A stretch of DNA of 64,000 bases from Candidatus Didemnitutus mandela (GTDB lineage: Bacteria > Verrucomicrobiota > Verrucomicrobiia > Opitutales > Opitutaceae): NCBI GenBank assembly GCA_002591725.1, contig NJAL01000007.1:1-64000 (forward strand), read 5' to 3'. This document shows, piece by piece, positions 1 to 64,000 of this stretch (the first letter of the stretch is position 1; each line of letters starts with the position of its first letter). Under the pieces are notes generated by a model that was given only the letters and a program-made list of their open reading frames with translations, did no database searches and was not told the DNA's origin. The translations under genes were made by a program, and so were the position numbers.

Positions 1-1690
1 GCGCGAAAAGGGGCAAAGATGAGTCCATCTAGAAGGTTCTTTACCTGAACGACAAGACTGAGACCGGGAAAGTACAGCAGTATTTTTTCGCCAACTTGCT
101 CTCTGCGCGATATCATCCGGAGGCGTTTCAGCCAAACGAGCAATTCTTGGGAAAACTTTACGGATAAGGCTGTCATTCAACTCAATGACACGCGCCTGGC
201 GGTCACGGTTGCCGAACGCATGTTCACCTTGTTAGGCGAGCATGCCCAGAGTTTTGACGCGGCCTTGTCACTAACAACAAAGATATTTTCCTACACGAAC
301 CATATATCCTGATGCCCGAGGGACTGGAGCGTTGGAGTGTTCCGTTGCTTCAATGCGTACTGCCGCGCCACCTTACAATTATCTATGCGCTCAACGAGCG
401 CTTGATGGGCATCTGTTAATCGAAATGGCCCGGCGACGACGCAAAGAAGCGCACCGTCTCGCTCATCGATGAGTCCGGCTCCCAATATGTGCGCGATGGC
501 GAATCTCGCCATCGCTGGATCTCTTTGTGTAAACGGCATCGCCATGCTGCACACGCGCTTGTTTCGGCAAGACTTATTCCCAGAGCTAGATGCCCTTTGT
601 CCGGGAAAATTCAACAATAAGGTCAACGGCATGACATCGCGCTGCTGTTTACGCGCGTGCAACCCAAAACTCTCCGCGCTTATCACGAAGAGCATCGGCG
701 ACGGCTGGTTGCGCGAACCTCGACCGGCTGCGCCAGTTGGAGAAGTTTGTCGACGACGAAAAGTCTCAACGGGAATTCGTGACGATCAAATGCAAAAAAA
801 GTACTTCTTGCTGGCATCATTTGCTGCGAGTGCGGTGTCGAGGCTTTTCCGGATGCGCTTTTCGACATTCATATCAAGCATCTCCACGAATACAAGCGCC
901 AAGCATCTGAGCCTGCTCCACATTCTCTGGCTTTATCGTCGGATTCTACAAAATCCTTCGATAGACGTTGTCCCGCGCGTGTTTGTTTTCTCCGCAAAAG
1001 CTGCGCCTGGGCTACGACTTGGCAAAGGCCATCATCAAGTCGATCAATGCGGTCGCTAACCTCGTGAACAACGATCTGCGCATCGATGGCAAGCTGAAGG
1101 TCGTTTTTTCTGCCGAACTTCCGCGTATTGCTCGCGGCGCGCATCATCCCAGCCGCCGACGTTTCCGAACAGATTTCCATTGCTGACAAGGAGACGTCCA
1201 GTGCGGGCAACATGAAGCTTGCGTTCAACGGAACTGTGATACTGGGCACGCTTGACGGCGCGAATGTCGAAATTCAGCAAGAGGTCGGTGAGGATAATAT
1301 TTTTATCTTTGGCCTCACGGTCGAATAAGCGAACGAGTTGTTCGCTTGCTGCTACCGTCCTTGGAATTGTTGTGAGCACGACGAAAAGTTGCTCGCCGTG
1401 CTCGACTCGCTGGGTTCTGACTACTTCGTCAAAGGCGAGGAGCAAAATTTTCCGGCTATGGTGCGTGTAAGCCTGCTCGAGGGTGGCGACTCGTGTTTCG
1501 TGCTCGCGGGTTTTTGTGCCTATTGCGATGCGCAGGAAAAGACCAACACAGAGCGTGGTGGTAAGGTAAGTTCTCTAGTGATCGCACAATTCGGGAATAC
1601 GCAAAGAGGCATCTGGAAGCTACTACCCATGAGCGTCCTTGACCAGGCTATCCTACATCATTTTAATTTTTCCGACTTCTTTATGCGATT
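1..1690 (+). pseudogene. glgP: glycogen/starch phosphorylase (glgP) pseudogene, 5' end outside window
   Basis: Family role: PLP-dependent release of glucose-1-phosphate from glycogen or maltodextrin. Conserved blocks occur in collinear order but in shifting frames: a KVLYLNDKTETGK block near 30-80, IQLNDT near 175-190, a TNH...PEGLERW block near 297-335, KFNNKVNG near 607-630, [13 protein letters not shown] near 950-990, [12 protein letters not shown] near 1141-1177, then the PLP-lysine region [12 protein letters not shown] near 1200-1235 and [15 protein letters not shown] near 1245-1287. Frameshifts lie between almost every block, and an in-frame TAA follows at 1326. The C-terminal SLLEGGD block (near 1470) and terminal IWKL (near 1610) are also visible. 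No single frame covers more than about a quarter of the enzyme, so it cannot make an active protein. Gene identity is firm; exact ends are approximate. Confidence 0.9.
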
Positions 1691-1779
1691 TTAAACTGCG
1701 GTGATCGTTTAAAAAACGGGGTTGATGCCCCTCTCACTGTTACTAACTGGTGTAACGAATAATCTATTTTCCCCGAGAA

Positions 1780-2960
1780 TCATGCGTCTATCAGCCGTTT
1801 TTATCCGTTAACTTGCTATCCCTTCCTTCTTGCCGACTGCGCTATGTTGGTGTTGGCATCCTTACTGGTGCTCACGCGCTGGCGTTTGGCTAAAGTTGCG
1901 GTATCGACTGGATTGGAAACGGTCTGGGCTCGGGACGTCCATCTTTCTATCTTTATGGTGCGAGCTGATCTGTGTGGTTTGATATGAAGGATGTCGACTT
2001 TCGTTTCCACACGCAGCCATTCTCAACCGCGAAAATGGTCTTCCTGTAGAGGCATTGTTGGGCGAGCGAGTGCACATCGAAAATGCGCGTGTACAAATCG
2101 GCTTGAATTATCCGCGAAAGTTGGTTTGACTCTTGTGGATTTTGGTCCATTTGCATAAAAAGTGGACAGTTGCTTTTGTCCCGGCTGAGCTTTTGACTGA
2201 AAAACTTAGCTTTTATATTATAGTCAACCTGTAATCTGGGCTATGGCCATGGAAGAAGAACTCCTTACGGCAGCCTTTAACGACTTGGATAAAGTGAAAA
2301 AAGCGAGCAGTCGGGAGAGCGCTGCACGCTAGCATACCGTGGTGTGACATTGCGAAGACGCGCGACCTACAGTGTGTCTTGAAGAATGGTGTCGACTGTG
2401 ATCATATAAAACCTTTCGATAGACGCATGTGCGTGGCAGTACTTTGTGGCCCAAATCAAGTTATTGCTGGCTGGGGTGGACAATTGAAGGGCAGCTTCAG
2501 ACTGATATTTCGGAAAACATGGAGAACAACAGTTTGCGTTTCACTAAAAAATGAATATGTAGAACGGAAACTTCCACAACAAAGAGCGAAAGGAAAAGGA
2601 AAGGGGAAAGATCGCATCGCTCTGAAAGGTACTGATCCCGGGCTTCGGGCTTAACCTCCCGACAACTTGAAAAAATCTGCTCTCAACTCAACTCGGCGAG
2701 GCTACCGTGGCTCAGCTGAGCGCGAGCAATTTTCTGGCTCAGGATTTGTTGGTGACGGTGGCGTTTGTGGATCATTGATTGCAAATATCAGCCTTGCTAG
2801 ATGCGTCATGATTTGCGATGGTGTGTCAAAAAAACTCCAATGGATTTCCGTTAGAGGACAGTATACATATGTTTTTTTCCAAATAACTTATCCTGACTTT
2901 AGCCTGCCAAAACGCAGAAACGATCGCTAATTTTAGCGATGAGTGCCTTGTGTATCTGTT
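1780..2960 (+). other. unrecognised decayed coding remnant, possibly AsmA-like membrane-anchored protein
   Basis: From an ATG near 1782 the plus strand shows short hydrophobic then beta-type stretches in changing frames (MRLSAVFIR, then LVLASLLVLTRW, then FDMKDVDFRF near 1978). Near 2697-2790 there is an open piece reading ATVAQLSASNFLAQDLLV. This resembles the membrane-anchor-plus-beta layout of AsmA/DUF748-like proteins, but no diagnostic motif is present. I could not find an intact gene on either strand. The possible identity is a guess from layout only. Confidence 0.2.
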
Positions 2961-2990
2961 ATTGCTAAAATGGCCGCAGTATTGAGGGCT

Positions 2991-6110: not shown

Positions 6111-8540
6111 GTGGTTGGCCGCATCGCTGCGATAGCTTACGAGCGCATCGCAATTTTCGCCTAACAGCTTTCCCTCTTCAACCTCGAAGAGAAGGGGGAT
6201 ACGGGAGCGCGTTCGCGAAGACAAAAAGTCTGCCAGATTCGAGTACGAGGATAGTGTGCAGCATGGACCTCAAAGCATGTTTAACGTATTTTTTCGAAAT
6301 GATGGTGCCCTCGACGTGTTCTGCCAACTTGTTCAAAGCTTTTGCCAACAGGGGAAACTTGTCCTCTGTCCACAACTGGACATATGTGTATTAGTAAGCT
6401 TGTCTTGGCAATTTCTTGAGTACTACTGGAAAGTCATAGCAGGGAAGCCCTTACCGAGTTGATTAGCCAGAAGCTCGAGCCAAAAGCGATTAGACACAGG
6501 AGGTTCCTTACGACGACAATGCCTCCGGGATAAGTGGAATCAAATTTCTTTCTACATGGCCTCGATCTGTACGGTAATGCGCGTGCCCAATTCCTTGGCG
6601 TAGTGTCGGCGAAACGCTCGATGGTGTCACTGATCTTCTCCGGGATAGCCGCTTGTTTGCGAAGGAGCTGCTGATCTAGCAGACTGCCTGCATATCATGA
6701 AGGGTCGATACCGGTCCTCCGTGCAAAATTTGCGATGGTTGTCAAACCTACGAAGACTGACGCTATCCTTGTTCTGATAAACCAAAGTTTTCCCGATTTC
6801 CAATTTATTTGCCCATTTGGTGGCAGAGTTTTGGGCTTGCAGGACTAGAATTTTCCAAGTTGGGCTAGAAAAAAACGTGCAATTTTTCATCCATTGCTAG
6901 GTTCTCTCTAAAAAGCAAGTATTCGGTCGAATACCCTATACTGGATCGCTTCGAACATGTGGTTTGTTTCAATTTTATCGGCTTCCACGAGATCTGCGAG
7001 ACTCTGTGGACAACCTTCAGGATACGATCATATGCTTGAGCTAAAAGATACAGCTGCTCCCCCCATGGCCGCCTGCAGCATATTTGCCCAAGGCTGGCGT
7101 AAGCGCACAGTGCCGGCCGATTTTTCCTGGACATCCTCGCGTTCGAGGATATTCTAGTTTTTCGAAGCTGCATGCGTTGTTGATTCTCGTGTATCGCTCG
7201 ATACGCTCACATATTCTGGCCGAGGTTTCATCCCGGTTGCTTCGACATGCAAGTAAAGTGTGGGCTAGAAGCAGGCTACTCATTCGGTTGTGGCATTTCT
7301 GGATTTGCGTTGGATAACAACGGTATTGGTGTTTAAAGTAATGTTGCTTAGGTAGTTGCACTGAAAAAAAAGGGGTTCGTTGCCGTTACCAGCATAAAGT
7401 TACACAGCAAGGTGATTTTGTCAGCGTTGCTTGAGATCGTAGCTCGAAGGGCTGGCGAAAACCCTCGAGCGCCGAACGCTTGAACACAGATAGTTTGTTG
7501 GGGAAAAGGACGCCATTATGGACGAGCGAAATCCCGACCAGGCGCGCTGAATTGCACCGCCACCGGAGCAGTCCAATGTTCAAAATTTTATGATTGGGCG
7601 TTCGAAATAACGCTCGCTGATGAGCGCTTTTCCCGGCGGCCGAACTAATGCGGAGGATTTCGAGGTGTTCGTTGAACTCTGGTGGCGACACGACCGAAGG
7701 GATGCATTTCGAGATCATGGATTTGGGCATCCAGTGGCTCGATCATCAAGTTATGGTCTGCCTGAACCAGCTGTTTCAACGACGCGCTGCTGCCGGATAG
7801 GGTAAGTGCGGATTCGCAGCTCAAGAAGGGGCTATCTGATCCAAGAAGTCGATTGGGAAGACCTCAACCCGTTCGCTAGCCCATTTCCTTAGCCGTTACT
7901 CGCGGTAGGAATACTCGCGGTTTTTCACTTTTTCGTGCCAGCGCTGCGATAGCGAAACTGTCTTTGACTGGCTGTGTTGTACTGGATAGGCTGAACTCGC
8001 CTACGATCAGATAGTCGCCTTGGGTTTTTAACCTATAGCTGGTCTGTCGCGACGAGCAGCGGGAGCGCAATGGCTATACCGTAAGGCGGTCCTTTCTTTC
8101 ACAAATTGTCGAGTGCGAGATTTATTGTTATCCTGGTGCATGACTGTAAACGTCAGGGTTGGGTTGCTTAGCGCTAAGGAGATCCAATCCTACTTTTTCA
8201 AGGCAGCGTCTAACAGTTTGACAAGAAAGAGCTAGGGCTTAGCCGGTGTTTACCTCGATTTGGACAAGAACGGTTTTAATCCTGACCAAAATAAAATAGC
8301 CTGGCAGAAAGTGGCGAGACATACAGGTAGACGGAATTTTTCGGGTTGCTCCGATCCGAACAAACCTCCTTCCCAACATCAAGGGTAAATAGGAATTGAC
8401 AGTGCGAAGTTGAAAAATGATGTTATCTATGTCGGAGTATTTATGTGCGATTTCGCACCGACAGTGTTGAGCAAACTTTGCGCAGAACCTACGGCCTCTT
8501 ACCACTGTCCCGGGTAGCGAAATAGAGGTTGCCCCGGAGC
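6110..8540. other. 2.4-kb degenerate region, no intact gene recognised
   Basis: Only short open stretches exist on both strands. On the minus strand a segment around 6370-6250 (KFPLLAKALNKLAEHVEG) looks like real helical protein and may be the sensor part of the kinase remnant downstream. Near 7660-7790 the plus strand reads TEGMHFEIMDLGIQWLDHQV, and near 8250-8330 a frame contains LDLDKNGFNPDQNKIAWQKV; both look like former coding sequence of unknown family. I see no RNA gene or mobile element here. Confidence 0.5.
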
Positions 8541-8562
8541 CTTAAGTCGGTTGCCTGGAATA

Positions 8563-9159
8563 ATGGGCAAAGGAGACAGTCTGTTTGTCGGGCTTACTGG
8601 TGGTATGGGGTGCGGAAAGTCGACGGTGGGAAAACTCTTTGCTGAGCGCGAATTCCTGCGCCTTGATGCCGACGAAACCGTGCGAGAGGAAATTTTGAAC
8701 AAGCCCGCAGTGGTTTCCGCTCTGCGTGACCGTTTCGGCGATGGAGCTGTAACGCCGATAGGAACGGTAGACCGAAAAGCTTTGGCCGGAATCGTTTTTC
8801 GGGATGACGAAGCGCTCTCTTGGCTGGAAAAGCTGATTCATCCCCAACTCTGGGAAAGATGGAAAGAGCTCTTTGACTCGGCAACCGATCAACGCTTCAT
8901 CTGCGAAGTGCCTTTGCTCTTCGAGAAGCAGATGGAGAATTGGTTTGACTCCACGGTGTGTGTCACCACAGGTTCCGCTTTGCAGCTACAACGGCTGGAA
9001 CAACGCGAAATTCCGCCAGAGCTCGCTTATAAGCGTATTGCTAAGCAATTGCCTTTGGCCAGAAAATGCGAATTGGCAGACTTTGTAATTCTGAACGATG
9101 GTTCCCTTGAATTTCTGCGCGAACAAGTAGACGCGCTGGCTCAATGTCTCTCTCCCTAA
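8563..9159 (+). CDS. coaE: dephospho-CoA kinase
   Basis: Catalyses the last step of CoA synthesis, ATP-dependent phosphorylation of the dephospho-CoA ribose 3'-OH, in the cytoplasm. The P-loop GLTGGMGCGKST lies at about residues 10-21, followed by the LDAD substrate-site motif (LRLDADETVRE). The LIHPQLWERW and VPLLFEKQMENWFD segments are typical of CoaE, as is the C-terminal LADFVILNDGS. About 198 residues is normal for the family. ATG 8563 is chosen; an in-frame TTG at 8551 is the alternative, and neither has a Shine-Dalgarno sequence at a suitable distance. An AAAGGAGA stretch lies just inside the frame (8568-8575), so the original start may have been slightly downstream. rho begins 26 bp after the stop, suggesting co-transcription. 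Confidence 0.95.
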   Translation: MGKGDSLFVGLTGGMGCGKSTVGKLFAEREFLRLDADETVREEILNKPAVVSALRDRFGDGAVTPIGTVDRKALAGIVFRDDEALSWLEKLIHPQLWERWKELFDSATDQRFICEVPLLFEKQMENWFDSTVCVTTGSALQLQRLEQREIPPELAYKRIAKQLPLARKCELADFVILNDGSLEFLREQVDALAQCLSP

Positions 9160-9185: not shown

Positions 9186-11051
9186 ATGGAAGTGCCTCCA
9201 AATGAACCCGAGGAAAAATCCAGCCTCGCCTCCGCTACCGAAGGTGAAGCTCCCAAGAAACACCCACGCACCAGCTCCCGGCTGGTGCACGGAAAATCTT
9301 CGCGCAAAACAGCGGCTTCAGAAGAAACGCTGTCGGCCGAACCCCAATTGGAGTTGGCTCCAGCTTCGGAACCGCCGTCTCCGGCGTCTAAATCTGAAGC
9401 AAAACGCGAACTCATTCGCGAGTGTAAACCGGAATCGCTTGTACCCGCCGTGGCTGCTTCCGAGGAGTCGGCGAATGGCGGGGGCTACGACCAGCGAGCC
9501 AGTTTAGCAACAGAAACCAAGGAATCTTCCGCGCCGGAAGCGACTTGCAGTGCTAACCACCACCACCAACAACAAGGGCAGGGTGGCGTGAAGTTCAACC
9601 GCTGGCGCGACAAGAGGTTTCGCGGCGGCGGAGGCAAATGGAGTAATCATCAGAATCAGAGCGGCCCTAGGCATCGGTTGGAGCCTCCACCGCCAAAGGG
9701 CGAGGCCTATCCCAGCGAGTTGCCTGACCCGGCTCGCTTTGCTGATCTCGCAGCGCTCGACCAGGTTGCCGATGATATTGCAGCGAAGAAGGCCGACCCG
9801 ATATGGCTTTTCGAACTCTATTCCTTAAGTCATGCCGAACTCCTTTCCAAGGCCCAGAGTCTTGGCGCAAAATTTGAAGCTATCCCCAGTCGCCGCCAAT
9901 TGCTTAATATAGTTTTTACAGCTGCCGCCGAGCAAAAGATCCCGCTGCTGGATCGCGGCTGGATCGACCTCACCGATTGTGGTTACGGCTTCGTCGTGCA
10001 TGAAAGCGTTAACTATCAGCTCTATCCCGAGAACGCGTTTCTAGCCGAGGGCTTCATTAAAAAATACGGCTTGAAGCCCGGCCATCTCGTCGAGGTGCAA
10101 GTCCAGGCCCCCAGCCCGAACGGTCGCTGCCCGAGTGTTGTGCGCTTGTTCCAGGTGATGGGCAGAAGACCCGATGAAATTTCCAAACTAAAGCCTTTCG
10201 AGGAGCTTACGCCGTATTATCCACTCCAACGCATCTGGCTAGAAACACCCGGTTCCAAGGGAATCTCGATGCGAATGGTCGATATCCTCACACCTTTCGG
10301 CTTTGGCCAGCGCGGCCTGATCGTTGCTCCGCCGCGCACAGGTAAGACGGCGCTTTTGCAAAACATCGCCAACTCCGTTGCTGAAAACTTCCCCGAGACA
10401 AAACTTATTATTCTGCTGGTCGACGAACGTCCCGAGGAAGTCACGGACTTCCGCCGGCATTGCAAAGGCGAGGTGGTCAGTTCGACGTTTGACGAAACGC
10501 CGGAAAGCCACGTGCACTGTGCTGAGATGGTGATCGAGAAATCCCGTCGTCTGGTCGAACAAGGCGAACACGTTATCATTTTGCTCGACTCCATCACGCG
10601 TCTCGCGCGCGCTTGCAACGCCCTCGCATCAAACTCCGGCAAGATCATGTCTGGCGGCATCGAAGCCACAGCCCTTCAAAAAGCCAAGCGTTTTTTCGGT
10701 TCCGCACGCAATATCGAAGGCAGTGGCAGCCTGACCATCCTTGCCACGGCTCTGATCGATACTGGTTCGCGTATGGACGAGGTCATTTTCGAGGAATTCA
10801 AGGGCACTGGTAATATGGAGCTCCATCTCGATCGCGACCTTTCCAATAGGCGTATTTTCCCTGCCATCAACGTTGACAAGAGTGGCACGCGCAAGGAGGA
10901 GCTCATCTACCATCCGGACGAATTGGCTCGCATCTACGGCCTCCGTCGTGCGATGCAGGGCGTTCCAGCGGCTGACTCGGTCGAAATGCTCGTTCAGCGT
11001 CTCAAAAAGACCAAGACCAATGCGGAATTCTTGATGGGCTTGAACCGCTAG
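9186..11051 (+). CDS. rho: transcription termination factor Rho, long N-terminal extension
   Basis: Hexameric RNA-dependent ATPase/translocase that ends transcription. Roughly the first 190 of 621 residues are low-complexity: Glu/Pro/Ser/Ala-rich, then an [11 protein letters not shown] run and a basic Gly-rich patch ([14 protein letters not shown]). A SAP-like Rho N-domain follows (about 205-245), then the RNA-binding cold-shock-like domain (about 255-330, GYGFVVHES). The Walker A motif [12 protein letters not shown] is near residue 381 and Walker [16 protein letters not shown] near 460-475. The Q-loop segment and the R-loop ([16 protein letters not shown]) at the C-terminus are complete. Such disordered inserts are known in Rho of several phyla. 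Start ATG 9186 lacks a Shine-Dalgarno sequence. Intact, no odd residues seen in the ATPase core. A second rho lies at 18840-20012. Confidence 0.97.
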
Positions 11052-11192
11052 ACTTGCCCGCTGTTTTAGCTTGTGTGATCGTGCCCGGTGACTATGTAAT
11101 CCATCTCGTTCCCTGGAGTTTGTCGGACAGGCTGCTTTATGTGGCGAGCTGGTCTGTTCCGCTCGCGCTGTTGGCGTCTGGAAAAATGTGGA

Positions 11193-11217
11193 ACCCCCAT
11201 TGCACGGCAATGGGGGT
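11193..11217 (+). terminator. perfect 11-bp hairpin downstream of rho (possible terminator without U-tract)
   Basis: ACCCCCATTGC and GCAATGGGGGT flank a 3-base ACG loop, giving an uninterrupted 11-bp stem with seven G-C pairs, 142 bp after the rho stop. No T-run follows, so it is not a standard intrinsic terminator. It could be a decayed one, an RNA 3'-end stabiliser, or chance. Its perfection stands out in otherwise eroded sequence. Confidence 0.4.
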
Positions 11218-11284
11218 ATCGCCGATGGAGTGAGAGAGAGTTTACTCGCCGGCATCGATCAACCGGCGGCTGAAGTCTCGTCTC

Positions 11285-41795: not shown

Positions 41796-41799
41796 GGCG

Positions 41800-52317: not shown

Positions 52318-52806
52318 TGAAATCCTGCTTTCAAGTTGTTGTTCGAAGACGGTCAGCTGACCGATAGTTCAAGTGGCGCCAAGCTGCGAGCACTTGGAAC
52401 AGCTGCAGAAAAGTAAAATCTTCTTCGACTGGGTATCCGGTGCTCGACTTCTCTCGCGAGTCAGCAGCTGTGCGCGCTTATTATCGGGACTAGAATCACT
52501 TCCGAGCACAGCCAAGAGGCTTCAACCGTCTTGACAGGTGCATGGGCCTGGTTGACGAGATCCAGTTGTGCTGATCCAGTTGTGCTACTTGTACTTGATA
52601 TCCGGCGGCTACGATCTATTATTTATTATTGTTTGTTAGCAACTCGTCCTTGTAACGTGTCGCGAATTTCGTTTCAGAAAAATTGTTTACGTTTGAGGGC
52701 GTGCTCTCGACGTCGACCCATTTCATGTAGCGCAGCTACAAAGAGCAGCGCTACTATTCTATCACAGCGACGCGTGAAACATCGCCGTTTGAACCCAAGA
52801 AGCAAC
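52318..52806 (+). pseudogene. Lrp/AsnC-family regulator pseudogene
   Basis: Fragments in shifting frames: LTDSSSGAKLRALGTAAEK near 52355-52410, then a VRAYYRD stretch near 52468-52490, HSQEASTV with GFNRLDR near 52510-52535, LVDEIQLC near 52548, and VANFVSEKLFTFEGVLSTST (52658-52718) followed by HFM-RSYKEQ. The last segment is the hallmark end of the Lrp/AsnC ligand-binding (RAM) domain. The gene ends only about 6 bp before the aminotransferase start, so it once regulated or was co-transcribed with it. A 14-bp direct duplication (52559-52586) falls inside. Non-functional. Confidence 0.72.
52559..52586 (+). repeat. direct duplication, 2 x 14 bp (GATCCAGTTGTGCT)
   Basis: Two adjacent perfect copies within the Lrp/AsnC pseudogene, in the region that corresponds to the ligand-binding domain. 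A 14-bp insertion shifts the frame. Confidence 0.95.
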
Positions 52807-53999: not shown

Positions 54000-54072
54000 A
54001 TATTCCCGATCACCCTCTCGCGGTTTTAATCTGGATCCCAAGTTTAAAGCCACTAGCTTACAGTCTGAAACC

Positions 54073-55536
54073 ATGTCTCGCGTTGTCGCTATCGTCGGCC
54101 GACCCAATGTTGGCAAAAGCCGCCTGTTCAATCGACTGGCGCGCCGCCGCTTTTCCATCGTCCACAATCAAGTAGGCGTTACACGAGATGTCGTCTCTGC
54201 GGAAATCGAAGATGGGTCCTATACATTGCTTGATACCGGCGGTTTCGGACTTTTGGACCCGAACACTCCCCATAAGCTTATTAAGGCTTCGGAGGCTCAA
54301 GTGGAGGTTGCCGTCAATGTTTCCGATCTGATTCTTTTCGTCGTCGACGGCCGCCAGGGCACAACCATGCTCGACGAGCGCGTGGCGCAACTGCTGCGCA
54401 AATCGAAAAAATCTGTCATTTTCGTTGCCAACAAAACCGATTGCGGTGTCGAACACCTATCGAATGAGAGCGAGCTCTACCGTCTCGGCTTCGGCGAACC
54501 GGTCTTTGTTTCTGCCGAACACGGTGGGGGCGAGGCCGATCTGCGCACCGCGATTTTGGAGAAGCTAGGCCCGTTCCATGACATGCCAAAAACAGCCGTC
54601 GACCGGCTGACGATTTGCTTCGTTGGACGTCCCAACGTCGGCAAATCCTCGCTGAGCAATCGCCTCCTCAAAAGCGACCGCTTGATCGTCAGCGATATCC
54701 CCGGCACGACGCGCGATTCGGTAGAAATCGAATTCGACTTCAAGGCGCGCGACGGACGGCTCTGGCCATTTAGGTTGATCGATACCGCCGGTATTCGGCC
54801 GATGCCCAAGTTGTCGTCGTCGGTCGAGTATTTTTCCCGCGTCCGTTCGCTCGATGCTATTCGCAGAGCCGACGTTGTTTTCATGGTGCTCGATGCGATG
54901 GATGGTGCTACGCAGCAGGATAAATCCATCGCCGGCGAAATCATCGAGGCTGCTTGGCCAATTGTCGTTGTCGTCAATAAGTGGGACCTCGTTTGCGCGG
55001 CGATCCGTCGCGGTGAGCTAAAAAAATACAAGAGCGAACGCGATTTTCGCGAGAAGTTCGAAAGCGTGCTGCACGACCAGCTCTTTTTCACGCCAAGCGC
55101 ACCGGTGATGTTCGTCTCGGCATTTACCGACAACGATATCGAGCGCATGCTCAAGACCGCCCGCGGACTGAACGAACGCCTCAATCGTAAGATTTCAACG
55201 GCCAAACTAAACAAAGCCATAATCGAACTGACGGACCGCACGCCGCCGCCTATGGTCGGCGGCGTGCGTTTCCGGGTTTACTATGCTACACAGACCGGCA
55301 ACCGCCCGTTCAGAATCAAGTTTTTCTGCAACCGCGCAGAAAAAATTACGGAGCAATACCGGCGCTACCTCGAGGCGGGCTTAGTAAAGGAGTTCTCCCT
55401 TGATGGCTGCCCAATACACTTCGATCTCGTCGGAAAGAAACGTCAGCCTATCAAGGAACGCCTCGCGTGTTGCTCGGCGCGCTGTAAGAACACCGTCGTA
55501 TCCGCGGAAGAGGAAGCAGAATTCGGTCCGAGTTAG
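54073..55536 (+). CDS. der: ribosome-assembly GTPase Der (EngA)
   Basis: Der has two GTPase domains in tandem and a KH-like domain and helps mature the 50S ribosomal subunit. The first P-loop GRPNVGKSRLFNRL is at about residues 8-21 and the second, GRPNVGKSSLSNRLL, at about 185-199. DTGGFG and DTAGIR G3 motifs, NKTD and NKWD G4 motifs are present, and the KH region follows (about 375 on, RTPPPMVGGVRFRVYYATQT). The frame is open further upstream, but ATG 54073 begins MSRVVAIVGRPNVGKS as expected for the family and is chosen. 487 residues is normal. The C-terminal tail is Cys-rich (ACCSARCKN), unusual for Der and possibly drifted. fmt follows 18 bp after the stop. Confidence 0.97.
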   Translation: MSRVVAIVGRPNVGKSRLFNRLARRRFSIVHNQVGVTRDVVSAEIEDGSYTLLDTGGFGLLDPNTPHKLIKASEAQVEVAVNVSDLILFVVDGRQGTTMLDERVAQLLRKSKKSVIFVANKTDCGVEHLSNESELYRLGFGEPVFVSAEHGGGEADLRTAILEKLGPFHDMPKTAVDRLTICFVGRPNVGKSSLSNRLLKSDRLIVSDIPGTTRDSVEIEFDFKARDGRLWPFRLIDTAGIRPMPKLSSSVEYFSRVRSLDAIRRADVVFMVLDAMDGATQQDKSIAGEIIEAAWPIVVVVNKWDLVCAAIRRGELKKYKSERDFREKFESVLHDQLFFTPSAPVMFVSAFTDNDIERMLKTARGLNERLNRKISTAKLNKAIIELTDRTPPPMVGGVRFRVYYATQTGNRPFRIKFFCNRAEKITEQYRRYLEAGLVKEFSLDGCPIHFDLVGKKRQPIKERLACCSARCKNTVVSAEEEAEFGPS

Positions 55537-55554: not shown

Positions 55555-56556
55555 ATGCTTCGTCTGGTTTTTATGGGCTCCGATGCGATTGCGTTGCCAT
55601 TGCTCAATTGGCTGGCCAGCGAAGGCAGGGGAGTCGCCGAAATCGTCGCCGTCTTCACGCAGCCCGACCGACGATTTGGTCGCGGCCAAAAAATTCAAGC
55701 CAACAAAATCAAACGTTGGGCAGAGAGCCGGGCACTTCCGATATATCAGCCCCAAAAGCTCGACGATTCCGAATTAGCTACACTTCAGACGTACGCGCCG
55801 GACGTCGCACTGGTGATGGCTTACGGGCACATCCTGCGCAATTGCTTTATTCACACGCCGCGGTTCGGCACGTTCAACCTTCACACTTCACTTTTGCCAA
55901 GCTATCGCGGTCCTTCGCCGATCCAGGCGGCTATCACCAATGGAGAAAAGGAGACCGGCGTTACGTTAATGAGTATCGTTACCGAACTCGATGCTGGGCC
56001 CATTGCTGACGTGGAACGTGTGGCGATCGGCTCGCTTGATACTGCGCTCGAAGTCGAGGCCAAACTTGCCGCCGCCTGCGTTCCGCTGCTTGCGCGCACC
56101 CTGCCGAAGCTCGCCACTGCCGAAATTTCCTTCACTACGCAACTTGACAGACGTGCGACCTTTTGCCGGAAACTTGAAAGAGGTGACGGCGTGCTCGACT
56201 TTACCCAACCAGCGTCGGCCATCGCCGCTCGCATCAACGGCCTTTCCCCGTGGCCGGCATGCACGGTCGAAATCGCCGGCCAATTTGTGAAAATCGGCCG
56301 AGCCGACGTTGCGGCATCAACGGTTCCGGCCCGCAGGCTGCCGGCCGGAACCGTGTTCGGCACCAACGCCGAGGGCCTGCTCGTGGCGACAGGGAACGGA
56401 GTCCTGTGTTTGCGTCGCTTGCAACGTCCTGGCGGAAGAATGCTGCCTGCCGCCAATTTCTTACGGGGTTTTCCGATCGCTATCGGCACGAGCCTACCAT
56501 CTCAGCCGATGCCAAGTTTGGTCGCCAACCAGCCGTTTCCATTCCGCAAAATTTAA
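55555..56556 (+). CDS. fmt: methionyl-tRNA formyltransferase
   Basis: Formylates Met-tRNAfMet using 10-formyl-tetrahydrofolate so that translation can start. The N-terminal Rossmann-like domain has MLRLVFMGSDAIALP, FTQPDRRFGRGQKIQANKIK, and the catalytic motif FNLHTSLLPSYRGPSPIQAA (Asn, His near residue 108-110). It also has GVTLMSIVTELDAGPI. The C-terminal OB-like domain begins near 206. The motif is normally followed by Arg-Gly-Ala-Ala-Pro; here it is Arg-Gly-Pro-Ser-Pro, a mild change near the active site. 333 residues is slightly long (usual about 315). ATG 55555; no Shine-Dalgarno sequence. Its end overlaps an intrinsic-terminator-like hairpin. Confidence 0.95.
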   Translation: MLRLVFMGSDAIALPLLNWLASEGRGVAEIVAVFTQPDRRFGRGQKIQANKIKRWAESRALPIYQPQKLDDSELATLQTYAPDVALVMAYGHILRNCFIHTPRFGTFNLHTSLLPSYRGPSPIQAAITNGEKETGVTLMSIVTELDAGPIADVERVAIGSLDTALEVEAKLAAACVPLLARTLPKLATAEISFTTQLDRRATFCRKLERGDGVLDFTQPASAIAARINGLSPWPACTVEIAGQFVKIGRADVAASTVPARRLPAGTVFGTNAEGLLVATGNGVLCLRRLQRPGGRMLPAANFLRGFPIAIGTSLPSQPMPSLVANQPFPFRKI

Positions 56557-56599: not shown

Positions 56600-57179
56600 G
56601 TGCTACTGTATTCCCATGTTTTTTTCTTCGACTTACCACAGTAGGTTCGCTCACTGCACAGACATCGCAAGGCTCCGGTACCGGATTTGAAACCGCTAAG
56701 ACTAAGGGAGGATGTGCGCATACTGAATCAAAAGCTTGGAGAGCTTTCTCTAACCGTCGAGCAGCTGGCCCCGTTAAAGCAACACTCTCCAGTCTTAAGC
56801 CGACCAAAATTACGCCACAGTAGTGGCAGTTCAATCACGCCGTGACCGATGTAAATCGCATTCTATAATTGGCGCTTTCCGACCAGCGCCGCGATATTCT
56901 CATCCAAATTGTAGCCCAAATAGAATGTTTCGGCAAGCAGACGAACGCTACACTCAATTCGCTTGCGAAAGAACAAGCGAAGAGTCCGGGTGGCGCAAAC
57001 GAGTTTCGGCGACGGTTTCGCCAGAAAAGGCATCAACTACACTGTACAAACCGGCGACACGATTTACTCCGTTGCTGCGAAAAAACTCGCCTATCAAAGG
57101 CATTGTAAGCACCAACAAGATTCCCGATCCTGCCAAAATCATAGTTGGCCAAACGCTCTTTATTCCCCAAGGCAAATAA
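56600..57179 (+). pseudogene. LysM-domain peptidoglycan-binding protein pseudogene
   Basis: Shifting frames give LRLREDVRILNQKLGELSLT (56690-56750), then SDQRRDILIQ / QIECFGKQTNATLNSLAKEQ (56876-56980), AQTSFGDGFARKGINYTVQT (56995-57050) with the LysM start GDTIYSVA, and INTNKI-type IVSTNKIPDPAKIIVGQTLF (57100-57165) with the LysM end IPQGK, TAA 57177. The LysM motif normally binds N-acetylglucosamine-containing peptidoglycan. Two or more frameshifts split the single LysM domain, so it is dead. Its end lies 1 bp before the GTG start of parB. Confidence 0.85.
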
Positions 57180-57180
57180 C

Positions 57181-58077
57181 GTGGTTACTAACAAGTCACG
57201 ACTCGGACGTGGCCTCGGCGCACTCATTGCCAGCGGCACGCCTCTGGAAAAAAATGCCCCGGTCCCCACTGCACCACCGTCCGGCGCGCTTGCCAACTAT
57301 CGCGAAGTGCCGGTAGCTCAGGTCGAGCCCAATCCCTATCAACCGCGCAAAAAGATCAACCCCGAGGTGCTTACCGAACTGGTTCAGAGCATCTGCGCCG
57401 AAGGCCTCCTCCAGCCGATTGTTGTACGGCCCGTTGGCGAAAAATTTCAGCTCATTGCAGGCGAGCGCCGCTGGCGCGCTTTTCAGCAACTCAAACTTAA
57501 GGCCATCCCGGCGCGCGTTATGATATCGAGCGATGCTTCATCGGCTACGCTCGCCATGATCGAAAACCTCCAGCGCGCCGGCCTGAGCTCCCTCGAGGAA
57601 GCGCATGGTTATGCGAGCTTGATTCGCGATTTCGATCTGACACAGGAGGCGGCTGCACAGCGAGTCGGCCGCAGCCGTGCGGCTGTCGCGAATTCGCTGC
57701 GCCTCCTCAGCCTCGAGCCTGAGCTTCAAGGTTACCTGAACAAGGAGTTGCTCAGTGCCGGACACGCCAAGGTCTTGCTTGGGGTCGAAAGCTCTACCGA
57801 ACGCTTGTCGCTCGCCCGGCGCTGTCTAAAAGAGGATCTCAGTGTGCGCGCTCTCGAGGCGCTGGTGGTACAAAAGCGCGGAGGCGCTCCTGGCAAGCGT
57901 CGCAACGTTCCCATGGTAGAAGCCACGGCGATTTCCGACATCGAGCGCAAACTCACCTCCCATCTTGGTGCGCGTTCTTTGCTACGGCACTCGCCGAAAC
58001 GGGGACTCATTACCATCGAATACGCTGGCAACGACGATTTGCAACGCATTCTCTACAAACTAGGTGTCGTGCTGTAA
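57181..58077 (+). CDS. parB: chromosome-partitioning protein ParB
   Basis: ParB is a CTP-dependent DNA clamp that loads at parS sites and drives chromosome segregation with ParA. The N-terminal KSRLGRGLGALIAS (residues about 5-18) is the ParA-contact region. The CTP-binding fold has QVEPNPYQPRKKIN, GLLQPIVVRPV and AGERRWRAFQQL (about residues 92-103). IENLQRAGLSSLEEAHGY (usually Glu-Asn-Leu-Gln-Arg-Glu-Asp-Leu) and the helix-turn-helix TQEAAAQRVGRSRAAVANSL (near 155-175) follow, with a C-terminal dimer domain. GTG 57181 (MVTNKSRLG) is preferred to the upstream TTG 57145, which lies in the LysM pseudogene's final codons; an AAGG sits about 8 bases before it. ParA is not in this window. Confidence 0.95.
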   Translation: MVTNKSRLGRGLGALIASGTPLEKNAPVPTAPPSGALANYREVPVAQVEPNPYQPRKKINPEVLTELVQSICAEGLLQPIVVRPVGEKFQLIAGERRWRAFQQLKLKAIPARVMISSDASSATLAMIENLQRAGLSSLEEAHGYASLIRDFDLTQEAAAQRVGRSRAAVANSLRLLSLEPELQGYLNKELLSAGHAKVLLGVESSTERLSLARRCLKEDLSVRALEALVVQKRGGAPGKRRNVPMVEATAISDIERKLTSHLGARSLLRHSPKRGLITIEYAGNDDLQRILYKLGVVL

Positions 58078-59798
58078 CTACGGCGAGGCTGGTAGAAGGT
58101 ACGGTGCCTTGCAAACGGAATTTGGATTGTCTTTTTACCACAAAGCCAGAGGCCAATTCTGTCTTGGCGACGCGCTGGCAGAGTTCCTTAAAGTTAAAGG
58201 CGCGATCGGCGGTATTCTCCAAAGCGCCCACCTGTTCATAAGTTCCGCAATTCCTCAGTGACTAGTCGTGGCCGGTCAGAAACGCGAAATTGTTGCTTAC
58301 GAGATGAAAAAATGCTCAATTTCCCATATTTGGCGTCTGGACGTGCCTTAGAACGAGAACGTGCATGGGCATGGGCATTATCCATGCCAATCGATTCGCT
58401 ACTCTGTTAACCGGACTGAGCGGAGGTGATGGTCCTGGCTGCTTCTTTGAATTTGAAGCAGCGATAGATAGCTCGTGTTTCTTTTATAGTCAGCATGTTT
58501 GGAAGCCTCGGTCAACTCGTGTTCCCGAAAGCCTTGGCGATATCGTCTTCAAGAAACGGCTGCTACACGGCAGGCAATTTAACTGAATTTTAAAGGTAAG
58601 TCGGCGGCTTTGGAAAACAATGTGACGAACAGCAAAACAGCGACAAAAAAGGTCCTCGATGGTGTGATTTACGAGTTTGATGAAGGGGGCAAGATGGAGC
58701 TCCTCGGCTTTGATCTCGTTGCCCGTGCCATCGGTGTAGAAGGCCGTCACTTTGTCGATGTTGACCTTGGCAAAATGGTGCGTGCATGCGGCGACTTTGG
58801 AGCCCTTGAACCATTTTTGAGCAATTCCTCCATCAGCGTTGCCGGGATGACGTGGGCGTTGTCGGTTTGCCGCTCGGTGGCCTGCTGGAAAGCCTAATGC
58901 TTGGTGTAGCTGAGCGGATTCGTCATGAATACGCTGAGCGTGGACGGGGGCCGAGCTTAGACGCTTTCGTGGCAGGTTACTCGGTTACCGATTATCTCGA
59001 CTAGCTTTCCTTCGATTTCCGCCTTGCTGAGGATACTAACGAACGGGAGCTCGATTGACTTCGCGGTATTTTTGGCGCTCAGCTGGAACTTAACTTATTA
59101 TCCAGTATGCGCTTTAATAAGCAAAGAGGAACACTTGGCGACTTCCTGGGTTAGGCCAAGATCGCACTCGGTTAACTGGCTGTGGTGCCGGGCGACGGAC
59201 CTTCTGTTGAACACCTAGATCGCTCCGATGACGATGTTTGCCTTTAGCGGAACCGTGATGTATTCGAATCCGGTGAGAAAGCCTTTCACCGAACTCATGG
59301 ACGGTTCCTGCGTGACGCTGTTGCGAAAGAAGAGCTGTTCGTTGGCCACGATGACTTTGCTGGCATTGTCCGAAAAGGCTGGCAGTAGCTTTCTCGCGGT
59401 GTCGTGAAGCTGGAGTTTCTTGCTGCGACCGGCGTTCCAAAGTGTGGGCGAATAATAGGCATGCTTGAAATCGATTTCCCACGCTTTGAGAGGTAGAATT
59501 CTATCGATGCGCCTTCGCCTAGAGGAGCTCAACGACCTTTGCTGGCGGCTGACTAGATGGCGGAAGAATCCCCCCTGGTGGCTGGGATCTGGATTGGAAG
59601 TGATTTTGGTCAGTAACAAGCGGCGAAGTGTCCCGGTGAAGGAGCTCGAGGACATTGGGAAAACTGGGCGTCGAACAAAAAACGTTGGGGAAAAGAGTGG
59701 AAAGGCGACTAATGTAATAAAATGAAGTGGCCAAGGGCGAATATCTCAATACTTACATAGCCAAGTCAAGTCTAGCAGCGAATTACACCGACTAAGCG
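58078..59798. other. 1.7-kb degenerate region, possible large minus-strand protein remnant
   Basis: Minus-strand frames share patches that look like real protein across about 1.1 kb: YYSPTLWNAGRSKKLQLHDT near 59445-59390, SMSSVKGFLTGFEYITVPLK near 59300-59245, and KVTAFYTDGTGNEIKAEELH with LAPFIKLVNHTIEDLFC near 58755-58665. They suggest one eroded, beta-rich (perhaps AsmA/YdbH-like) envelope protein, but I recognise no diagnostic motif. 58.08-58.4 kb shows nothing. Confidence 0.3.
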
Positions 59799-60165
59799 AT
59801 GGGTAACTCCGCTGGCACCAAGGGCGAAAACCCCGCGGTAACTTTCTTTACCGGCGCCATAGGTTTCGTGTTGTTACCTAAAATTGGCACAGCTCGCACG
59901 AGCGGCGCGACGAGATCGACATCACGGGCCGCGATGGTGACATGCTAGTATTTGTTGAGGTGAAGGCGCACGGCGCCGACTCGTTTGTGCCCAACTACCA
60001 CATGGTCGACTAGCGGAATAAGCGTGTGCTGCAACGCACGGTGCATGCATATCTCTCGGTGCTCGGAAACCCGCTGCAGACTTTTCTCTTTCGACGTAGC
60101 TGACGTCGATTTGCACGGCAGTATGGCGGCGTGCTCAGTACCTACACTTTGCTAACATGTCGTTT
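59799..60165 (+). pseudogene. YraN/UPF0102 endonuclease-like pseudogene
   Basis: ATG 59799 opens MGNSAGTKGENPAV (usual Gly-x-x-Gly-Glu-x-x-Ala start). After a frameshift, RDEIDITGRDGDMLVFVEVK (59908-59965) carries the active-site-like Asp-Glu-Ile-Asp and Glu-Val-Lys of the nuclease-fold family, followed by AHGADSFVPNYHMVD and a stop at 60012, then NKRVLQRTVHAYLSVLGNPL (60017-60075). Another frame ends with FSFDVADVDLHG, the usual final Phe-Asp-Val strand. UPF0102 proteins are predicted nucleases. At least three lesions; dead. It sits 175 bp upstream of the intact NtrC-type regulator. Confidence 0.85.
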
Positions 60166-60340
60166 CTCCGAAAGGGCTATTGTTGTCCAAAAAACGGATT
60201 GCTGGGAGGTTTTTATCTTAAATTGAAGTAACGGGTTGTGGCGATTTTTGAAGCTAAAAAAATTCACTCGGTGCTCAGCGTTTGTGTCAGTTTGGCGCAA
60301 AACCATTGACTCCGTTAAGTTTTGTGGCCTTCATGAAAAT

Positions 60341-61705
60341 ATGATGCCGAGCGTTTTGATCGTCGATGACGAGAAGCACACTCGCGAGGGCTTGGAGCAG
60401 GCGTTGCAGGACAACTACGACATGTCGGTTGCGGCCAGCGCGGATGAGGGCTTCAACCTGATGGATGCGCAGAAATTCGATGTGATTGTGACCGACTTGC
60501 GGATGCCTGGGAAAAGCGGTCTCAAGGTGATCGATGAGGCACTCACACTTATCAACAAGCCCGCGGTGATTATGATGACCGCTTACGGTAGCATCGATTC
60601 GGCGGTCGAAGCGATGAAGCGCGGTGCCGCGGATTTTCTCACCAAACCGGTCAATATCGAGCGGCTTGAAATTATCATCCAGCGCGCGCTAAAATCGCGC
60701 GCCCTGGAGATCGAAGTGAAACAGCTACAAGAACGACTCCATGACAAATTCAATATCAATGGCTTCGTGGGGCACTCGCAAAAACTGCAGGAAGTGGTCG
60801 AGCGCGTGAAACTCGTGGCGCCGGCGAAAGCCACGGTATTGATCGAAGGCGAGACCGGCACCGGCAAGGAACTCGTGGCGCAGGCTATCCACCAGGCGCG
60901 TTCGCGCGCTTGTGGGCCGTTCGTTGCGGTCCATTGCGCGGCGCTGCCATCGACGTTGCTCGAGAGCGAGCTCTTCGGCCACGAACGCGGCGCGTTTACC
61001 GGTGCGACGGAGCGGCGCGAGGGACGCTTTGAAGTGGCAGATGGCGGCACGGTGTTTCTCGACGAAATTGGCGAGATCGGCTCGGAAATCCAGGTTAAGC
61101 TGCTGCGTTTCCTCGAAACAAAAAGTTTTGAGCGTATCGGCAGCACAAAAACAATCACTGTCGATGTGCGACTCGTTGCCGCGACCAACAAGAATCTCGA
61201 ACAGATGGTGAAGAAAGGAGAGTTTCGCGAAGATCTTTTCTTCCGGCTTAACGTCGTACGCATTGCCACGCCAGCGCTGCGCGAACGACCCGAAGACGTT
61301 CCCTTCTTGCTCGATTATTTCCTTGCGCTCTATGCGAAAGAAAATGGCTTCAAGCCTGTGCAGATTGACCCTGGTGCGTTGAAGACGCTGCAGGCCTACG
61401 CGTGGCCTGGAAACATCCGTGAGCTGCGAAACTTTGCCGAAAGCGTAACAGTGTTGCGACGAGGCGGGCGGTTGACCGAGTTCGAGCTCGAACCGCGTTT
61501 CCGCGGCAAGATGATGTTCGATTCGGCCTCCGTGCAAGACAATGCGTTTTCCGTCGAAGAAAACGAAAAGCGCCTGCTACAGGAAGCTTTGATTAAGGCG
61601 CACGGCAATCGCACCAAGGCGGCTAAGCTGATGGATATCTCACGACGTACGCTGCACCGCAAGCTTTCGCAATGGCCGGAACTCAACATGATCGACCGCG
61701 GATGA
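60341..61705 (+). CDS. NtrC-family sigma-54-dependent response regulator
   Basis: A 454-residue, three-domain activator. The receiver domain (1-120) has VLIVDDEKHT, the phospho-acceptor Asp in DVIVTDLRMPG (about 52), MMTAYGS and the TKPVN lysine. The AAA+ domain (about 140-370) has Walker A EGETGTGKELV near 169, the sigma-54-contact loop GAFTGA near 216, Walker B ADGGTVFLDEIGE near 232-244, and the Arg-finger region FREDLFFRL. A C-terminal helix-turn-helix follows (GNRTKAAKLMDISRRTLHRK). All essential residues are intact, so it should activate sigma-54 promoters when phosphorylated. ATG 60341 is preferred to the upstream in-frame GTG 60236. Its cognate kinase is not recognisable nearby; the only kinase in this window is a pseudogene. 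No sigma-54 gene here. Confidence 0.95.
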   Translation: MMPSVLIVDDEKHTREGLEQALQDNYDMSVAASADEGFNLMDAQKFDVIVTDLRMPGKSGLKVIDEALTLINKPAVIMMTAYGSIDSAVEAMKRGAADFLTKPVNIERLEIIIQRALKSRALEIEVKQLQERLHDKFNINGFVGHSQKLQEVVERVKLVAPAKATVLIEGETGTGKELVAQAIHQARSRACGPFVAVHCAALPSTLLESELFGHERGAFTGATERREGRFEVADGGTVFLDEIGEIGSEIQVKLLRFLETKSFERIGSTKTITVDVRLVAATNKNLEQMVKKGEFREDLFFRLNVVRIATPALRERPEDVPFLLDYFLALYAKENGFKPVQIDPGALKTLQAYAWPGNIRELRNFAESVTVLRRGGRLTEFELEPRFRGKMMFDSASVQDNAFSVEENEKRLLQEALIKAHGNRTKAAKLMDISRRTLHRKLSQWPELNMIDRG

Positions 61706-63400: not shown

Positions 63401-63409
63401 TGTTGACGC

Positions 63410-63997
63410 AGACGTTTTTTGTCAGCTAGCTATAAGCTAGCTTTGGATTACGTCTCGGGCCTCCTGGGCGATAGGCCGTTTGCAAGCGACTCCTTTAACA
63501 GCCGCGTGGCGCATGCGTCCAGCGAAGAGAGCAACGTTGACGCTTCAAGCTTCTACGAGATCAGCAAAAACCAACATTCCCTGCTCAATGGCGTGGCATT
63601 GAAGAATAGATGAATCGTCCCTGGGCAACGAATTCAACGTGTGGTACATCGTTTTCGGTGAGCGGACCGGAGCGATTCTAACGGAGAATTTCTCCGGCTT
63701 CGAAGTGGGGTTTGCGTGGAACCAGCGACTCAAAGCAGTAGGCGAATACCAGTTTCAAAACATTCGTTACGACACGACTGGCAGCGACAAGGATAGCAGT
63801 TCGCATTTTTTCGTTGGCTTCGATTGCTTTGGCGCGGGAGAAGTGGCTAACGAGCGGACGGGTCGGATACAGTTGCATCGTTTGCCGAGCTTAGCTTGCG
63901 TTACGCGTATGTTAAAGGTTCGTTTGTGGCGGGCGGTTCCGGCCTCGATGAAACCAATCTTCATCTTGGTTTGGATTTGATTTTTGATACCGAATAA
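63410..63997 (+). pseudogene. outer-membrane beta-barrel protein pseudogene (3' part)
   Basis: Alternating frames carry amphipathic beta strands: YKLALDYVSGLL (63427-63460), NVDASSFYEISKNQHSLLNG (63534-63593), FSGFEVGFAWNQRLKAVGEY (63693-63750), QFQNIRYDTTGSDKDSSSHF (63753-63812). The end reads SLRYAYVKGSFVAGGSGLDE then TNLHLGLDLIFDTE (63950-63990) with a final Phe-type strand before TAA, as in outer-membrane porin-like barrels. Substrate unknown. Upstream strands are lost in the preceding degenerate region. Frameshifts at several points. Confidence 0.55.
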
Positions 63998-64000
63998 AAA

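What the first reader, a model, noticed from the sequence alone, without database searches (positions are those of the whole stretch)
1..64000. Only about a quarter of the window is intact coding sequence; some 25 to 30 recognisable genes are dead
Around 14 intact protein genes sum to about 16 kb. The remainder is largely collinear gene remains with frame changes between successive conserved blocks. Pseudogenes are at a readable stage and often span the full gene length, so inactivation outran deletion. This suggests recent relaxation of selection, as in a young obligate symbiont, not old reductive evolution.
Basis: partly seen in the sequence, partly recalled or inferred. Interest (0 to 1): 0.7.

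Follow-up and report, generated by a model that had tools for sequence, protein, structure and literature searches.

The report
Old, full-length dead genes in symbiont
This stretch of a sea-squirt symbiont's genome is about one quarter working genes, and its many dead genes were mostly switched off long ago yet have kept nearly their full length, which is unusual because bacteria are expected to delete useless DNA.

Summary
The window has 14 intact protein genes (16.4 kb, 25.6%), two tRNAs, and 22 firm plus 3 weak dead genes; 43% stays unassigned. The genome statistics match "Candidatus Didemnitutus mandela" (Lopera et al. 2017), where low coding density and 226 putative pseudogenes are already published. 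Frameshift-aware alignment to free-living-sized relatives in five regions (224 kb) gave 45 intact genes with one lesion in 16,985 codons and 47 dead genes with 673 in 16,097 (13.9 per kb): not sequencing error. "Recent relaxation" fails: stops and lost identity both fit neutral decay of about 0.2 substitutions per site, and only 4 of 47 dead genes carry under 7 lesions per kb. "Inactivation outran deletion" is right: 38 of 47 align over at least 80% of the reference, net length change -2.7%. Frameshifting indels favour insertion (+1:-1 = 148:54, same direction in all five regions), against the deletion bias expected of bacteria; longer indels favour deletion. The near-identical mnd repeats then look younger than most of the gene death, or homogenised.

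The parts
85..1547 (+). dead glycogen phosphorylase (glgP), remains in three frames
   Evidence: Pfam PF00343 in all three + frames, best E 1.3e-65
6923..8318 (-). dead yifB-type Mg-chelatase-like ATPase gene, 19 frameshifts, 3 stops
   Evidence: reference annotated
8551..9159 (+). intact dephospho-CoA kinase (coaE); conserved start near 8563
9186..11051 (+). intact rho, long form (name recalled from sequence)
11066..12143 (+). dead PilB-like pilus ATPase remnant 1 (11 frameshifts, 5 stops)
12083..13345 (+). dead PilB-like pilus ATPase remnant 2; the best alignment runs 11822-13345 and overlaps remnant 1; the pilT-like gene between the two in relatives (name recalled) has no place of its own here
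13362..14671 (+). dead pilC-like gene (T2SSF)
14728..15717 (-). intact YhaM-like HD-domain gene (below the NCBIfam cut-off)
15716..16250 (-). dead isochorismatase-family gene
16382..16927 (+). intact conserved gene of unknown function
16986..18749 (-). intact conserved gene of unknown function, 587 aa, 76-77% identical in five relatives
18840..20012 (-). intact rho, short form (name recalled from sequence)
20113..22171 (+). dead acetate-CoA ligase gene, 21 frameshifts, 8 stops, full length
22280..22894 (+). dead GspG-like pseudopilin gene
22903..23365 (+). dead second pseudopilin gene
26566..26640 (+). tRNA-Met
34016..34948 (+). intact nucleotidyltransferase-like gene; conserved start near 34055
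   Evidence: all NCBIfam hits below cut-off
34985..35549 (-). dead PP2C-type phosphatase gene
35601..37604 (-). dead DinG-like helicase gene (name recalled from the reference protein), 21 frameshifts, 5 stops
38254..39300 (+). intact asd
39370..39446 (+). tRNA-Val
39496..40273 (+). dead hemC
40275..41036 (+). dead hemD
41309..42093 (-). weak remains of LrgB (41309-41443) and LrgA (41953-42093)
   Evidence: both below Pfam cut-offs
42289..43112 (+). dead LysR-type regulator gene
   Evidence: Pfam PF03466 and PF00126 in two frames
43272..44277 (+). youngest dead gene of the window: DegT/DnrJ-type aminotransferase, 79% identity, 2 frameshifts, no stop, one 25-residue loss
44310..44929 (+). dead trpF
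47085..47731 (+). dead TPR-protein gene, C-terminal half
49503..50513 (+). dead DUF900 alpha/beta-hydrolase gene
50846..52198 (-). intact ffh (name recalled from sequence)
52274..52794 (+). dead Lrp/AsnC-type regulator gene
52812..53999 (+). intact PLP-dependent aminotransferase gene
53944..55536 (+). intact der (name recalled from sequence); conserved start about 54041-54067
55555..56556 (+). intact fmt
56632..57176 (+). dead LysM-protein gene
57145..58077 (+). intact parB; conserved start about 57181-57196
58154..58586 (-). dead gene fragment, relative of a 332-aa gene downstream of parB in G005 (score 108, modest)
59849..60058 (+). dead yraN/UPF0102 remnant with in-frame stops
   Evidence: Pfam E 1.4e-8; stops in its frame and no start-to-stop frame of 40 aa there
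60236..61705 (+). intact sigma-54 response regulator gene (core 60353-61705)

Best explanation
The window is part of the chromosome of 'Candidatus Didemnitutus mandela', a defensive symbiont of a Lissoclinum tunicate. After host restriction most dispensable genes (type IV pilus, heme synthesis, trpF, acetate-CoA ligase, regulators, two helicase-like ATPases) were inactivated, mostly in an old wave, while core genes stayed under purifying selection. The dead genes then decayed without selection to about 0.2 substitutions per site, gaining stops and short indels. They stay in order and nearly full length because short indels are biased toward insertion and long deletions are few, so erosion is close to length-neutral. 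Shown: identity of the genome, two sharp gene classes, lesion load, neutral stop spectrum, collinearity, insertion bias. Inferred: the old wave (rather than steady loss over the same long time), and insertion bias as the reason the DNA persists.
For: Identity. Collinearity: the eight proteins searched lie in the same order in G001 (8 of 8) and G005 (7 of 8); G007 and G012 hold part of the block and G008 holds it in two pieces. Two classes: 45 intact genes with 1 lesion in 16,985 codons, 47 dead with 673 (245 stops, 428 frameshifts) in 16,097. Age: identity 0.477 and 0.0152 stops per codon fit simulated decay of this genome's own intact genes at d about 0.2; identity corrected for each gene's constraint gives mean d 0.21, quartiles 0.16-0.27, 42 of 47 genes usable. 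Neutral: stops TAG 121, TAA 78, TGA 46 match simulation. Length: net -1,400 of 51,318 bp; 38 of 47 cover at least 80% of the reference. Insertion bias: +1:-1 = 148:54, staying 90:41 at the strictest penalties tried; 31 genes for, 6 against, 10 tied; same direction in all five regions. Control simulations return the direction put in.
Against: A mostly old wave is favoured, not proven: ages uniform from zero would put 18-20% of dead genes under 7 lesions per kb against 4 of 47 seen (P 0.056 and 0.028), and lesion density rises little above d about 0.15 in the simulations. Dispersion (chi2/df 1.61) lies between simulated synchrony (0.84) and uniform ages (2.6-2.7). Indels of 10 bp or more are deletion-biased (72:37). 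Some genes are gone or unrecognisable (a P-type ATPase and its neighbour, the pilT-like gene). The genome is smaller than every same-genus relative listed (2.5-5.5 Mb), so large losses occurred somewhere. Block lengths against relatives vary: 1.06 (G001), 0.87 (G008), 0.88 (G005), 1.23 (G007), 1.39 (G012). The constraint correction rests on a weak regression (r 0.53). 42.7% of the window is unassigned.
Confidence: 0.78

Rival explanations
1. Recent relaxation of selection in a young obligate symbiont, as the first reader proposed and as the 2017 paper also leans ('relatively recently').
For: Many pseudogenes are still recognisable and full-length; RecA and MutS domains lie in open frames; one gene of the window (43272-44277) is fresh.
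Against: 13.9 lesions per kb, about 14 per dead gene; d about 0.2 from stops and from identity; only 2 of 47 under 3 lesions per kb; recency-weighted ages would give 28.6% under 7 per kb against 4 of 47 seen (P 0.0008).
Confidence: 0.05
2. Steady gene-by-gene inactivation over the whole long symbiosis, with no distinct wave.
For: Dispersion 1.61 exceeds simulated synchrony (0.84); a few young dead genes exist.
Against: Few young dead genes: 4 of 47 against 18-20% expected, P 0.056 and 0.028. This is only moderate evidence.
Confidence: 0.25
3. Sequencing or assembly errors make intact genes look broken.
For: No raw reads could be examined here.
Against: Source reads are Illumina 2x101; 45 intact genes carry 1 lesion in 16,985 codons in the same assembly; three open frames of 6,379-9,403 codons in mnd (a higher-coverage region by the paper); 245 of 673 lesions are stops, with the stop spectrum of neutral decay; +1 events are not near homopolymers more than random sites.
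Confidence: 0.01
4. DNA persists because deletions reaching into neighbouring essential genes are removed by selection (border-induced selection), and the insertion bias is secondary or an alignment effect.
For: Dead genes lie between intact ones; such a model exists for neutral sequence between conserved borders (PMC9748784, abstract start in a listing and outline seen). Long deletions do outnumber long insertions.
Against: 1-2 bp indels would hardly be filtered that way, yet +1 exceeds -1 in all five regions; simulations with symmetric or deletion-biased input do not produce the excess.
Confidence: 0.2
5. A changed genetic code or programmed recoding makes the 'dead' frames readable.
For: TAG is the commonest in-frame stop (121 of 245).
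Against: TAG is also commonest in most of the neutral simulations; frameshifts outnumber stops (428:245); the 45 intact genes have no internal stop in their aligned parts and end in all three stop codons (TAA 20, TGA 14, TAG 11).
Confidence: 0.003

Closest known systems
'Candidatus Didemnitutus mandela' genome (Lopera et al. 2017, PMC5698493)
   Same: This is that genome by size, contig number, mnd contig and N50. The paper reports low coding density (64.3% of 1x contigs), 226 truncated genes and 1,922 short ORFs without hits.
   Different: Frameshift-aware alignment puts intact coding at 25.6% in the window and strong ORFs at a mean 36.3% in 14 other stretches. An ORF-plus-BLASTP search sees 26 of 47 dead genes, three of them through an ORF longer than the reference, so probably a neighbour's. 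Extrapolating 47 per 224 kb or 22-25 per 64 kb gives about 430-800 dead genes. The decay is old. In the passages and sections read the paper gives no indel spectrum and expects pseudogenes to 'be lost quickly'.
Mycobacterium leprae
   Same: Massive inactivation with pseudogene DNA kept; published ages form one normal distribution read as a single continuous event (PMC3923669, passages).
   Different: Different phylum and lifestyle; its coding density is given as 49.5%, lower here. Its indel spectrum was not looked at.
Sodalis glossinidius and Sodalis pierantonius SOPE
   Same: Large pseudogene fraction soon after host restriction.
   Different: SOPE is described as recent and IS-rich (PMC3914690, passages and one section), S. 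glossinidius as about 30,000 years from a free-living relative (PMC5698493). Here decay is about 0.2 substitutions per site and the 2017 paper reports no transposases annotated.
Serratia symbiotica SCc
   Same: Very low coding density (38.7%; PMC3899985, passages).
   Different: There the spacers show no homology to genes; here many are still readable.

Membership tests
'Candidatus Didemnitutus mandela' assembly Ver_v2 | 2.17 Mbp, 10 contigs, N50 319.6 kbp, 108-kbp mnd contig | tested here: met
   sequence identity to the deposited record was not tested
'Candidatus Didemnitutus mandela' assembly Ver_v2 | large PKS cluster mnd in very long intact frames | tested here: met
   17 of 21 ketosynthase matches lie inside three frames of 6,379-9,403 aa on C1; the trans-AT type itself was not tested
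Young pseudogene-rich symbiont (Sodalis type) | most pseudogenes with few lesions (recalled) | tested here: not met
   2 of 47 under 3 lesions per kb; median 13.5 per kb
Young pseudogene-rich symbiont (Sodalis type) | IS-element proliferation | not tested
   the paper reports no transposases annotated
Old single-wave pseudogene-rich genome (M. leprae type) | pseudogene ages clustered around one old age | tested here: inconclusive
   4 of 47 young against 18-20% for uniform ages and 4% for synchrony; chi2/df 1.61
Old single-wave pseudogene-rich genome (M. leprae type) | pseudogene DNA retained near full length | tested here: met
   38 of 47 cover at least 80%; net -2.7%
Deletion-biased bacterial decay | short deletions outnumber short insertions | tested here: not met
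   +1:-1 148:54, +2:-2 51:31, 3 bp even at 38:39; indels of 10 bp or more do favour deletion, 72:37

The most novel reading that the evidence does not exclude
This symbiont's neutral short-indel spectrum is insertion-biased, so its pseudogenes erode in sequence but not in length, and a bacterial genome stays largely dead long after inactivation. On this clock the sevenfold mnd amplification is far younger than most of the gene death (or its copies are kept identical by recombination, RecA lying in an open frame). That contradicts the published suggestion of duplication prior to genome degradation, or the idea of a recombination-deficient chromosome.
Probability: 0.5. Interest if true: 0.7.

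Novelty: new variant of a known kind. Interest (0 to 1): 0.5.

Why it matters
Why bacteria lose useless DNA is usually explained by a general deletion bias. This genome is a case where hundreds of long-dead genes can be read beside intact ones, so the neutral indel spectrum and the timing of gene death can be measured directly. It also revises the published picture of a well-known drug-producing symbiont: probably more dead genes than counted, an older host restriction, and a biosynthetic amplification that looks later than the decay.

Tried and rejected
Loss of proofreading as cause of the insertion bias: no DnaQ-like RNase_T domain was found in this genome, but none was found in 10 of 11 same-genus relatives searched either; G006 has one, and 4 of 6 other genera of the family have one. 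So it is not symbiont-specific. MutS and RecA domains lie in open frames, so plain absence of either is not the cause.

Homopolymer slippage: +1 sites are not near homopolymers more than random sites (0.16 against 0.19 with runs of 4 or more); -1 sites are somewhat more (0.28).

Pfam in the seven gaps listed, all six frames, stops as X: most frames gave nothing. The 23.4-34.0 kb block gave only a weak GH43 hit and a weak DUF3619 hit. A viral-protein family hit at E 0.04 was discarded as chance.

A first gene caller by hexamers picked wrong strands in the references and was replaced by one using conservation between references. A first reading of an insertion excess from raw frameshift counts was tested with merged indel clusters and simulations before use.

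Borderline rows kept in the counts: two dead calls scored only 97 against a threshold of 95 (C3 G001_022, C6 G008_053), and C6 G001_036 has a single frameshift and may be alive. Rows dropped: reference proteins under 60 aa, matches overlapping a better one, and two 'partial open' matches on the tRNA genes.

Literature: searches aimed at indel bias in bacterial pseudogenes showed, in their listings, no paper reporting a short-insertion bias in them; this covers only the held open-licence library and those terms. One listed paper reports insertion bias of large structural variants in E. coli (PMC10292909, passages).
Full report
WHAT IT IS. The window is contig C8, bases 1-64000, of a genome of 2,171,216 bases in 10 contigs. 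Those numbers, a 108,264-base contig C1 and a 319,645-base contig C5 match the assembly of 'Candidatus Didemnitutus mandela', a Lissoclinum symbiont: 2.17 Mbp, 10 contigs, 108-kbp mnd contig, N50 319.6 kbp, Illumina 2x101 (PMC5698493; passages, sections 6, 7, 10 and 19). C1 carries 17 of 21 ketosynthase matches in three uninterrupted frames of 6,379, 6,619 and 9,403 codons, as expected of the mnd polyketide cluster. That paper already describes low coding density (64.3% of 1x contigs), 226 putative pseudogenes found by ORF truncation, and 1,922 short ORFs without hits, so the phenomenon is in print.

METHOD. Eight intact window proteins located matching blocks in five same-genus relatives: all eight in order in G001, seven of eight in G005, part of the block in G007 and G012, and two separate blocks in G008. 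Reference genes were called by conservation between relatives. Each reference protein was aligned to the window with a frameshift-tolerant aligner written for this. The highest score in 1,806 shuffled-protein alignments was 86; the threshold used was 95. The same was done for four 40-kb stretches on contigs C3, C5, C6 and C9, with G001 and G008 only as references, giving 224 kb in all. Intact/dead counts by region: window 14/18, C3 6/11, C5 14/4, C6 5/12, C9 6/2; parts of each stretch, C5 and C9 above all, found no match.

THE OBSERVATION. In the window 14 genes are intact (16,411 bp, 25.6%). 18 are dead by alignment, with 227 lesions in 5,407 codons. Adding an overlapping second PilB-like remnant and three Pfam finds in broken frames makes 22; three weak ones make 25. 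Dead genes cover 31.6% and unassigned sequence 42.7%. Losses include type IV pilus-type genes, hemC, hemD, trpF, acetate-CoA ligase and regulators. The rest of the genome sampled looks similar but richer on average: strong ORFs fill 27.8% of the window and a mean of 36.3% (17.9-57.4%) of 14 other 20-kb stretches.

NOT AN ARTEFACT. Over five regions, 45 intact genes carry 1 lesion in 16,985 codons and 47 dead genes carry 673 (245 stops, 428 frameshifts) in 16,097. Intact genes were defined by few lesions, but random errors at 13.9 per kb would leave almost no gene whole. Stops (TAG 121, TAA 78, TGA 46) follow the neutral expectation, and intact genes end in all three stop codons, so no code change is needed. 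ORFs of 60 aa or more in the non-intact DNA number 213 against 170 (sd 7) in Markov resamples: mostly chance, with some excess. This probably explains much of the published set of short ORFs without hits.

OLD, NOT YOUNG. Neutral decay was simulated from this genome's own intact genes. Observed identity (0.477) and stops (0.0152 per codon) both fit about 0.2 substitutions per site; by interpolation the stops give 0.14-0.24 over the mutation spectra tried. Correcting each gene for its constraint gives mean 0.21, quartiles 0.16-0.27, over the 42 of 47 dead genes with a second reference; the regression behind it is weak (r 0.53). Frameshift density (0.0266 per codon) was not an independent clock, since the simulated indel rate was chosen. 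At the M. leprae rate quoted in PMC3923669 (6.13e-9 per site per year) 0.2 would be about 33 million years; a rate ten times higher still gives about 3 million. These dates are inference, because the symbiont's rate is unknown. Only 4 of 47 dead genes have under 7 lesions per kb. Simulated ages weighted to the recent give 28.6% (P 0.0008), uniform ages 18.1-20.1% (P 0.056 and 0.028), synchronous ages 4% (P 0.12 for at least 4). Dispersion is 1.61 observed, 0.84 for synchrony, 2.6-2.7 for uniform ages. A young origin is rejected; an old wave is favoured over steady loss only moderately. The youngest dead gene of the window is the aminotransferase gene at 43272-44277.

LENGTH-NEUTRAL EROSION. 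38 of 47 dead genes align over at least 80% of the reference, and net length change is -1,400 of 51,318 bp. Block lengths between intact anchors are 1.06, 0.87, 0.88, 1.23 and 1.39 times those of G001, G008, G005, G007 and G012. Frameshifting indels can hardly have arisen in the working reference genes, so their direction is known. After merging neighbouring events, +1 against -1 is 148:54, +2 against -2 is 51:31, 3 bp is even (38:39), and indels of 10 bp or more are 37 insertions against 72 deletions. The +1 excess survives four penalty settings (90:41 at the strictest), holds in 31 genes against 6 with 10 ties, and has the same direction in all five regions. By reading-frame class alone it is 179:105 (P 1.3e-5). 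Simulations with symmetric, deletion-biased or insertion-biased input return the direction put in; the insertion-biased one gives net -1.9%. Passages read here describe bacterial short indels as deletion-biased (PMC10292909; PMC3899985).

CONSEQUENCES. An ORF-plus-BLASTP search sees 26 of 47 dead genes, three of them through an ORF longer than the reference and so probably a neighbour's. Extrapolating 47 per 224 kb, or 22-25 per 64 kb, to the 2.06 Mb outside C1 gives about 430-800 dead genes against the published 226. The paper suggests mnd duplication prior to genome degradation and reports a small number of SNPs between copies. With dead genes at about 0.2 substitutions per site, copies that old should differ widely at silent sites. 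So amplification is probably later than most gene death, or copies are homogenised (the RecA domain lies in an open frame). I did not see the SNP data.

LIMITS. Detection falls with decay, so very old dead genes are under-counted, whereas young ones should be found easily.

Noticed in passing
window 16986-18749 (-): A 587-aa gene with no Pfam, NCBIfam or PDB sequence match is 76-77% identical in the five relatives aligned and kept intact next to the short rho: a conserved gene of unknown function that survived the decay.
   Followed up: partly
window 9186-11051 (+) and 18840-20012 (-): Two intact rho-like genes, long and short, both with counterparts in relatives; keeping two in a decaying genome is unexpected.
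   Followed up: no
window 23363-34054: A 10.7-kb block with a tRNA-Met and almost no recognisable gene remains; the matching interval is shorter in G001 (anchor spacing 15.1 against 8.3 kb). Only weak GH43 and DUF3619 matches.
   Followed up: partly
genomes G000, G001, G003-G012: No RNase_T (DnaQ-like) domain found in this genome or in 10 of 11 same-genus relatives searched, although 10-11 of 14 control genomes have it: replication proofreading in this genus may use something else.
   Followed up: partly
window 11066-13345: Two PilB-like remnants abut where relatives have a pilB-like, a pilT-like and a second pilB-like gene, suggesting one old deletion of about 2 kb inside the pilus operon.
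   Followed up: partly
G000 C1 (mnd contig) against the dead genes: The near-identical sevenfold mnd repeats conflict with the age of the dead genes, if the published order of events is taken.
   Followed up: partly
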